Source: Sphaerochaetaceae bacterium (lineage in GTDB: Bacteria; Spirochaetota; Spirochaetia; Sphaerochaetales; Sphaerochaetaceae). Taken from it: a stretch of 64,000 bases of DNA. Within the stretch, counting starts at the first letter, position 1, and each line of letters begins with the position of its first letter. The notes under the pieces are model-generated. The model was not told the DNA's origin, did no database searches, and saw only the letters and a program-made list of their open reading frames with translations. Below are positions 21,828 through 23,236 of the stretch, piece by piece. A program made the position numbers and the translations under genes. The stretch covers positions 62,001 to 126,000 of the forward strand of contig JAKSPE010000003.1 of the NCBI GenBank assembly GCA_024405015.1. Reading direction: 5' to 3'.

Positions 21828-21864
21828 TTTTTATAAGATAATTGAAATCCTTTCGGGGATTTGG

Positions 21865-21896
21865 AATGGATCGCAGAAATGCGATCCATTTTTTAT
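21865..21896 (+). terminator. Intrinsic terminator after ushA
   Basis: AATGGATCGCA and TGCGATCCATT form a perfect 11-bp stem with a GAAA loop and a run of six T. A smaller hairpin (AAATCC/GGATTT) lies just before it. Confidence 0.9.
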
Positions 21897-21910
21897 CTCC
21901 TTTGAAATCC

Positions 21911-22202
21911 CTCATGTACATAGACCGTTCAAGGTCTGATGCATACCACCTTTCAGGTCGCCATGCAGCGGCTGCGCCAGGGTTTGGGGACCCGCTTGCC
22001 GCTAGGCAGGCTGGAATGCACAGACATCGAACCGCCAATGTACAATCGGATTTATGTTGTGATTGTGGGTAGGCTGTGAAATGCCTGTGTAGACGAGCGA
22101 CGTAGGCCACAAGGGCGGGCAGGATAGCCCAGACTCCAAAGTTGCCTGTCGCGTACCTGAAGGGGCGTATACATCAGGCTTTACATGGCCTATACACATG
22201 AG
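21911..22202 (+). ncRNA. Candidate structured non-coding RNA, unknown class
   Basis: No reading frame here looks coding, yet the two ends fold on each other over long distance. CTCATGT (21911-21917) pairs with ACATGAG (22196-22202), TGATG/CATCA and ATAC/GTAT continue the stem, and CCTTTCAGGT (21949-21958) pairs fully with ACCTGAAGGG (22155-22164). Symmetric side hairpins AGACC/GGTCT and AGGC/GCCT interrupt it. Inside are AGCGGC/GCCGCT, GGGT/ACCC, ACAATC/GATTGT and CACAG/CTGTG. The element is more GC-rich than what follows. It does not match tmRNA, RNase P, SRP or 6S features. Strand is assumed from the downstream gene; no clear promoter is seen apart from a weak ATGACA/TATAAG pair near 21812-21837. 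Confidence 0.5.
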
Positions 22203-22215
22203 CAACAGAAATAGG

Positions 22216-22296
22216 AGTTCTAACTGTTACTTGTTTTTTTTAAAATAGGTTAGTGAAAGTTCTAACCGAAGTCGAAAAAACTTAGATTCAGTTAGA
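22216..22296. repeat. CTAAC inverted and direct repeats before the nuclease gene
   Basis: AGTTCTAAC occurs at 22216-22224 and 22258-22266. GGTTAG and CTAACC form an inverted repeat (22248-22267), and GTTAGA recurs at 22291. They surround a possible promoter TTCTAA (22218-22223), 17 bases, TAAAAT (22241-22246). This looks like an operator region for the downstream gene; the regulator is unknown. Confidence 0.4.
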
Positions 22297-22358
22297 CCTC
22301 AAAATTCAAATTACTCAAAAATTTCTTCATTACGAACTGAAATTGCTGAATTCACAAA

Positions 22359-23189
22359 ATGGTTTCGACAGTTCCTTGGTATATGAGAGGTATGAAGCTA
22401 TCATATTTAATTCAAATTACTAGATCAATGATTGAACTGTCTGAAAGGTACCTTTCTTTTCTATCGGATAAGCCAAGAATTGCAGGACATCTTCGTATCT
22501 CGAAAGAAAAAGGCAATACTAGATTCTACTTGAAAAATGACTATTCTGAGTGCAGTGGACATTATCTTGCAAACTCTGAAATGGAGACTATCAGAACTTT
22601 AGCGCAGCAGGATTATGAAAAGAAATTAAGAAGGGAGGTTTCCAAAACTCTTGGAGTTCTGAGAAAGTCACTTTCACAGTTGGAGACTTGTAAAGACCCT
22701 GAAGAAGTCTTTACAAGTCTGTCAGAAGCTAGAAAGTCTCTTGTCGTTAAATCAACTCCAGCGATTGCTGATGCAGCGAAATGGAAGGATAGAGGATATT
22801 ACAGAAAACATGCATTCAGCATACATGACAGAGTAATCGTAACCAGAAACGGTCTTCGGGTAAGATCCAAGACTGAGGAGATTATCGTAAATATCTTTGA
22901 GGAATTGGAGATTCCGTATATCTACGAGTATCCGATAGTGATAGATGGTGAGTGGGTTTATCCAGATTTCACTGTGCTCAATACGCGGACCGGGAAGGAA
23001 TACATTTATGAGCATTGCGGGAAAATGGACGACCCTGACTATGTGGAAAGGAATCTGCTCAGGAAACTTGAGTTGTATGCAAAGAAAGGAATCTTCGAAG
23101 GTGATAATCTTCTGCTCACGTTTGAAACAAACAGCCATCCGCTCAATGAACAATACCTACTATCATTCATTCGAAAGCACTTTCTTTAA
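22359..23189 (+). CDS. PD-(D/E)XK nuclease-like protein, uncharacterised
   Basis: A 276-residue protein. Residues ~38-75 (GHLRISKEKGNTRFYLKND, then HYLANSEMETIRTLAQQDYEKKL) and the C-terminal part (RSKTEEIIVNIFEELEIPYIYEYP, YPDFTVLN, YIYEHCGKMDD) match a family I recall from gut Firmicutes. The acidic E near 170, D in PDFT and E-x-H in YEHCG resemble a PD-(D/E)XK nuclease core with His in place of the usual Lys. The DNA is visibly AT-richer than its neighbours, and neither ATG (22359, or 22392 close to GAGAGG) has a good ribosome site. It looks horizontally acquired and follows a structured RNA element. Target and role are unknown. Confidence 0.65.
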   Translation: MVSTVPWYMRGMKLSYLIQITRSMIELSERYLSFLSDKPRIAGHLRISKEKGNTRFYLKNDYSECSGHYLANSEMETIRTLAQQDYEKKLRREVSKTLGVLRKSLSQLETCKDPEEVFTSLSEARKSLVVKSTPAIADAAKWKDRGYYRKHAFSIHDRVIVTRNGLRVRSKTEEIIVNIFEELEIPYIYEYPIVIDGEWVYPDFTVLNTRTGKEYIYEHCGKMDDPDYVERNLLRKLELYAKKGIFEGDNLLLTFETNSHPLNEQYLLSFIRKHFL

Positions 23190-23236
23190 AAAGAAAGGCT
23201 GTATCGTCAACCTTTGAAAGGTTTCAGATACAGCCT
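23190..23236 (-). terminator. Intrinsic terminator after hppA
   Basis: AGGCTGTATC/GATACAGCCT and an inner AACCTTT/AAAGGTT form one long stem with small internal loops. On the minus strand TTTCTTTTT follows. The nuclease gene ends at its far edge. Confidence 0.85.

What the first reader, a model, noticed from the sequence alone, without database searches (positions are those of the whole stretch)
21865..23189. Folded ~290-nt RNA element coupled to a foreign PD-(D/E)XK nuclease-like gene
Between the ushA terminator and the nuclease-like gene lies a stretch without credible coding potential whose ends pair over ~280 bases (CCTTTCAGGT with ACCTGAAGGG, CTCATGT with ACATGAG). It has matched side hairpins on both arms and several internal stems. 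The next gene is AT-rich, looks transferred, and encodes a restriction-like fold with E, PDFT and YEHCG. A structured RNA beside a nuclease is the layout of RNA-guided or RNA-neutralised systems and of some mobile elements. I cannot match the RNA to any class I know, and the functional link is inference from adjacency.
Basis: partly seen in the sequence, partly recalled or inferred. Interest (0 to 1): 0.7.

Follow-up and report, generated by a model that had tools for sequence, protein, structure and literature searches.

The report
Mobile hairpin-repeat pair beside nuclease gene
The 'folded RNA' is really two mirror-image copies of a 140-base hairpin repeat scattered about 60 times through this spirochaete genome, apparently a mobile DNA family that keeps turning up beside a little-known, multicopy nuclease gene family.

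Summary
The sequence observation holds; its reading changes. 21911-22202 is not one RNA but an inverted pair of a ~140-bp unit (L 21911-22048, R 22056-22202). The host genome (2.0 Mb spirochaete MAG) has about 60 such units: solo, or in pairs that are always inverted (20/20). Four ~300-bp L-R pairs are 90-93% identical with unrelated flanks, so the pair is a mobile, MITE/REPIN-like element. Each unit is a hairpin with strong covariation; G-U pairs sit on one strand only, so one single strand (ssDNA or RNA) is selected. The link to the nuclease is real in this genus: 10 of 11 paralogues lie within 300 bp of a unit (P ~3e-13), also in sister species, and internal-deletion derivatives exist. All four Y1/HUH (RAYT-like) genes also lie by units. 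But the nuclease family is widespread in Lachnospiraceae and Treponema without the unit, so it is not an obligate RNA partner. There the nuclease has its own locus-specific inverted-arm arrays, phased at multiples of ~10.6 bp, which read as double-stranded DNA sites and recur as orphan arrays; the window gene has a degenerate 42-bp version. Best reading: mobile hairpin repeats, probably moved as ssDNA by a Y1 enzyme, beside a homing-endonuclease-like gene. Enzyme assignment is inference.

The parts
21864..21895 (+). terminator-like hairpin of ushA; the element lies directly after it
   Evidence: sequence ATGGATCGCA..TGCGATCCAT + T run
21911..22048 (-). hairpin unit L (structured strand is -, 5'-CGATTG..CATGAG-3')
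   Evidence: unit family aligned; CM hit G000:C23:83910
22056..22202 (+). hairpin unit R (structured strand is +), inverted relative to L
   Evidence: CM hit G000:C23:84059
22217..22296 (.). degenerate 42-bp array of inverted arms upstream of the nuclease: GTTCTAAC at 22217 and 22259, GTTAG at 22249 and 22291
   Evidence: read from sequence; same arms plus unit end recur at L049 without nuclease, 85% over 147 bp
22364..22383 (+). promoter-like 20-nt motif TTYNRCASTT-N4-GGTATA shared by nuclease and Y1 genes of this genome
   Evidence: exact match, best match in window (expected 0.29 even with 2 mismatches); 16 strict matches in own-genome DNA held, at nuclease genes and remnants, Y1 genes and a few toxin-antitoxin-like or unknown modules
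22392..23189 (+). nuclease gene, 265 aa from the ATG downstream of the promoter-like motif (ORF caller's ATG is 22359); N-terminal helix/beta/long-helix domain, C-terminal REase-like domain about 22791-23186
23196..23235 (+). terminator-like hairpin after the nuclease (GGCTGTATC..GATACAGCC); no unit on this side
   Evidence: sequence

Best explanation
The element is a MITE/REPIN-like mobile DNA element: two inverted copies of a ~140-nt hairpin unit found about 60 times in the genome. SHOWN: copy number, sharp ends, inverted pairing, recent dispersal of the 300-bp pair to unrelated sites, single-strand-specific covarying fold, and association with nuclease and Y1 genes. INFERRED: one strand folds as ssDNA and is cut and joined by a Y1 (HUH, RAYT-like) transposase acting in trans, as REP sequences are thought to be; nuclease genes sit between or beside units as passengers or partners. 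The nuclease itself (INFERRED) is a homing-endonuclease-like selfish enzyme that binds, as an oligomer, its own helically phased array of inverted arms next to its gene, for autoregulation and cutting of matching arrays elsewhere.
For: About 60 units. All 20 close pairs inverted (strands, pairs). Four ~300-bp L-R elements 90-93% identical with unrelated flanks. Covariation 96.2% paired, 0/500 shuffles, with about 60 G-U but only about 7 A-C cells on the selected strand. Y1_Tnp genes in own genome, all 4 within 300 bp of units, P 4e-6. Nuclease 10/11, P 3e-13. Deletion derivatives: L041 keeps the nuclease N-terminus between units, L049 keeps unit + arms without nuclease. Arrays beside nucleases: inverted arms, periods n x 10.6 bp (p ~7e-11 before correcting for the period scan; R 0.81 over 165 intervals), no strand bias in arm mismatches (G.T 178, A.C 163), orphan arrays in the same genomes. 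Nuclease model matches phage homing endonucleases, TnsA, Bax1 and R2 nuclease domains.
Against: No target-site duplication or empty site was shown. Units lack the GTAG head and are 3-5 times longer than REPs. Sister-species Y1 genes carry their own 9-bp repeats and mostly no units; G002 has units but no Y1 hit in a 74% complete genome. The covariation signature cannot tell ssDNA from RNA. Foldseek PDB hits are weak (E > 0.01) and the N-terminal domain matches nothing.
Confidence: 0.55

Rival explanations
1. The nuclease, not the Y1 protein, mobilises the units: units are the ends of a nuclease-driven element, autonomous copies being unit-array-nuclease-unit.
For: 10/11 own nucleases by units and 6 of 11 within 0-22 bp of a unit; in sister species units sit by nucleases (L279, L282, L289, L290, plus two fragments) but hardly by Y1 genes; deletion derivatives between units.
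Against: Nucleases of other genera spread without the unit. Nuclease paralogues differ far more (31-52% aa identity) than the units (often 75-85% DNA identity), so they do not move strictly together. A fold selected on one strand fits an ssDNA enzyme better than a REase-fold nuclease. No known PD-(D/E)XK enzyme acts alone as a transposase to my knowledge.
Confidence: 0.22
2. The unit is a transcribed structured RNA working with the nuclease (guide, scaffold or neutraliser), copied around like omega-RNA or HEARO elements.
For: G-U-containing covariation on one strand resembles an RNA (6% G-U vs 10% in an RNase P control); adjacency to nucleases; Foldseek similarity to R2 nuclease domains.
Against: Most copies have no nuclease nearby; no conserved flanking sequence such as a promoter; selected strand mostly antisense to the nuclease when the unit follows its stop codon; nuclease family elsewhere lacks the unit; no RuvC/HNH or known RNA-guided domain, only a PD-(D/E)XK one.
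Confidence: 0.08
3. Ordinary ERIC/MITE-like repeats that merely accumulate in permissive intergenic or mobile-gene-rich regions; adjacency to nuclease and Y1 genes reflects shared insertion preference.
For: Units lie intergenically, in the window right after a terminator; they also flank toxin-antitoxin-like modules (L027).
Against: Adjacency is extreme (6 of 11 nucleases within 50 bp) and repeats in several species; unit plus arms move together (L049).
Confidence: 0.15

Closest known systems
REP/BIME/REPIN repeats with RAYT (TnpA-REP) transposases
   Same: Dispersed intergenic covarying hairpins, solo and in inverted pairs, beside Y1/HUH genes related to REP_Tyr_transpos.
   Different: 135-147 nt rather than 20-50; no GTAG head; Y1 proteins score below the RAYT cut-off; also beside a nuclease family.
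MITEs / ERIC-like palindromic elements
   Same: About 300-bp non-coding element with inverted ends, multicopy, deletion derivatives.
   Different: Strand-specific covariation; no target duplication seen.
Phage homing endonucleases (Vsr/DUF559/DUF2726-like) and PDC-S68 C-terminal nuclease domain
   Same: Nuclease domain by fold and profile.
   Different: Own N-terminal domain with no match; gene sits by helically phased inverted-arm arrays.
IS200/IS605 TnpA + TnpB/IscB with omega-RNA
   Same: Y1 enzyme, accessory nuclease, hairpins near the gene ends.
   Different: Nuclease is not RuvC or HNH; no evidence of guide RNA; genes not in one operon.

Membership tests
REP/BIME (REPtron) | palindrome of 20-50 nt preceded by GTAG/GTGG (PMC8266576, PMC2817692) | tested here: not met
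   units 135-147 nt, ends N-CGATTG..CATGAG-N'
REP/BIME (REPtron) | many intergenic copies, inverted pairs | tested here: met
   about 60 units, 20/20 close pairs inverted
REP/BIME (REPtron) | cognate RAYT flanked on both sides by inverted REPs | tested here: inconclusive
   4/4 Y1 genes within 300 bp of units but a unit was seen on one side only; NCBIfam RAYT scores 15-29 vs cut-off 80
MITE | non-coding, terminal inverted repeats, multicopy, moved in trans | tested here: met
   L028/L031/L033/L034; movement in trans is inferred from copies without any gene
MITE | target-site duplication | tested here: not met
   none visible at 9 type-A and 10 type-B pairs
RNA-guided nuclease (TnpB/IscB/Cas) | RuvC or HNH nuclease with obligate adjacent RNA | tested here: not met
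   PD-(D/E)XK-like domain; most homologues lack the unit
Type III toxin-antitoxin (ToxIN-like) | tandem RNA repeats upstream of a ToxN-fold RNase | tested here: not met
   arrays show no strand bias and 10.6-bp phasing; the fold is restriction-enzyme-like, and no ToxN-like hit
Integron attC cassettes | attC core ends and an integron integrase | tested here: not met
   no RYYYAAC/GTTRRRY ends in units; only one weak tyrosine recombinase hit in an 85% complete genome
Homing endonuclease | nuclease gene lodged in its own target, copied by DSB repair | tested here: inconclusive
   fold hits to phage homing endonucleases; arms on both sides in some loci and orphan arrays; cleavage not testable
Any Rfam RNA family | score above gathering threshold | tested here: not met

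The most novel reading that the evidence does not exclude
A widespread family of PD-(D/E)XK, homing-endonuclease-like genes each carry and spread their own locus-specific, helically phased (n x 10.5 bp) inverted-arm DNA arrays, and in this spirochaete genus they have also taken over a mobile single-strand hairpin repeat: a nuclease-driven counterpart of the RAYT/REP system.
Probability: 0.3. Interest if true: 0.8.

Novelty: new variant of a known kind. Interest (0 to 1): 0.6.

Why it matters
How bacterial interspersed palindromic repeats spread and which enzymes move them is still open. Here is a large (140-nt) strand-selected hairpin family tied to two different enzyme families at once, and a common but apparently undescribed nuclease family of gut and rumen bacteria with DNA arrays phased to the helix. 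That makes direct tests possible: which protein binds which repeat, on which strand, and whether the nuclease cuts its own orphan arrays.

Tried and rejected
Rfam by score and E-value: nothing. Pfam, PHROGs and NCBIfam for the nuclease: nothing useful; PDB by sequence: nothing. Viral contigs: no hit. Dispersal by integron rejected. My first reading, that few G-U pairs meant a double-stranded palindrome, was wrong: it held only on the strand I had aligned; the complementary strand carries the G-U pairs. CRISPR-like arrays rejected: repeats have no variable spacers beyond point differences and are helix-phased. Whole genome as file not available.

Full report
Observation. No Rfam family fits. 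The downstream ORF has the motifs stated.

What it is. A search of the host genome with the stretch returned 55 places. Mapping them showed two halves, L and R, that also occur alone. Aligning them in one orientation gave a single unit with sharp ends, CTCATG..CACAATCG, about 135-147 bp, and unrelated flanks. The window has L (21911-22048) and R (22056-22202) head to head, which creates the 290-nt pairing. A covariance model finds about 60 units at E < 1e-15. By the strands listed, all 20 pairs closer than 1 kb are inverted. Four L-R pairs (L028, L031, L033, L034) are 90-93% identical over about 300 bp and unrelated outside, so the pair has moved. No target duplication was seen. Other composites keep 141-768 bp between units; some are deleted nuclease elements (L041), and L049 repeats the window's unit end plus the GTTCTAAC array without the nuclease.

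Strand. On the strand CGATTG..CATGAG, 33 consensus pairs are 96.2% formed, 19 have changes on both sides, and 0 of 500 shuffles reach this. G-U pairs are common on that strand (about 60 cells) while their mirror A-C is rare (about 7). G-U share is 6-8% there against 0.5-3% on the other strand and 10% in RNase P of relatives. Sequences are related, so cells are not independent, but the asymmetry means a single strand is folded under selection, as ssDNA or RNA. In most cases where a unit directly follows a nuclease stop codon, the selected strand is antisense to the gene, which speaks against a co-transcribed RNA.

Neighbours. The nuclease has 10 full-length paralogues besides itself in the genome, 31-52% identical to it. 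Of these 11 genes, ten lie within 300 bp of a unit (binomial 3e-13), six within 50 bp. The genome also has four Y1 genes (Pfam Y1_Tnp three above cut-off, one weak; HUH motif NHTH), all within 300 bp of units. Nuclease and Y1 genes share a 20-nt motif just before the start codon, TTYNRCASTT-N4-GGTATA, found in the window only at 22364-22383 at full match; the likely start codon is therefore 22392. In sister species diverged units occur (G002, G009, G010, G005, G006) and several sit directly beside nucleases (L279, L282, L289, L290 and two fragments). Other sister species have nucleases but no recognisable unit.

The nuclease family. It is found in at least 550 genome stretches, mainly Lachnospiraceae, Butyrivibrio, Treponema and other Clostridia, 1-9 copies per genome in seven tested. 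Residues 145-273 match the C-terminal domain of the PADLOC candidate PDC-S68 (E 1.6e-24). The AlphaFold model is confident (pLDDT 90.9). Foldseek gives restriction-like nucleases: phage homing endonucleases (E 1e-4), TnsA, Bax1 and R2 (E 0.02-0.05). The N-terminal domain matches nothing.

Arrays. Outside this genus the nuclease gene often lies next to tandem arrays, mostly upstream. Each repeat contains a pair of inverted arms whose sequence differs from locus to locus. Periods cluster at 42, 53, 63, 74, 85, 95 and 105 bp; the best common step is 10.6 bp (R 0.77, n 39; R 0.81, 165 intervals), the helical repeat of B-DNA. The Rayleigh value is not corrected for the scan of periods nor for relatedness of loci. 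Arm mismatches show no strand bias, so these arrays are read as double-stranded DNA. The same arms recur as orphan arrays elsewhere in two genomes tested, one of them duplicated at 99% in two sites. The window nuclease has a degenerate 42-bp version (22217-22296).

Mechanism. The most economical reading is a mobile hairpin element moved through ssDNA by a Y1 enzyme in trans, living in the same neighbourhoods as a homing-like nuclease gene with its own DNA arrays. Which enzyme acts on the units is not shown. The RNA-partner reading is weak but not excluded.

Limits. The genome is a fragmented MAG (48 contigs, 85% complete); contigs often end at units. Genus members are only about 65-90% alike in DNA, so empty sites could not be aligned. 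No expression data.

Noticed in passing
L241, L242, L244, L245, L249, L253, L256, L258, L260 (sister species) and L032, L034, L047 (own): Y1 (RAYT-like) genes are flanked by locus-specific tandem repeats of period 9 bp, usually inverted on the other side of the gene.
   Followed up: partly
window 22364-22383; L022-L054: A 20-nt promoter-like motif TTYNRCASTT-N4-GGTATA is shared by nuclease genes, Y1 genes and some toxin-antitoxin-like modules of this genome; its spacing does not fit sigma-70.
   Followed up: partly
L027:724-3700 (G000:C26): Several modules in a row, each starting with the same motif and a similar leader, around Gp49/RelE-like (PF05973) and DUF2442 genes; units flank the first one.
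   Followed up: no
L130, L139, L158, L185, L201 and others: Helically phased inverted-arm arrays beside nuclease genes in Lachnospiraceae and Treponema, with orphan arrays elsewhere in two genomes tested.
   Followed up: partly
L023:3843-4385: 543 bp between two units made of GGTCTGTAGGTCCG-like short repeats, perhaps a Y1 element that lost its gene.
   Followed up: no
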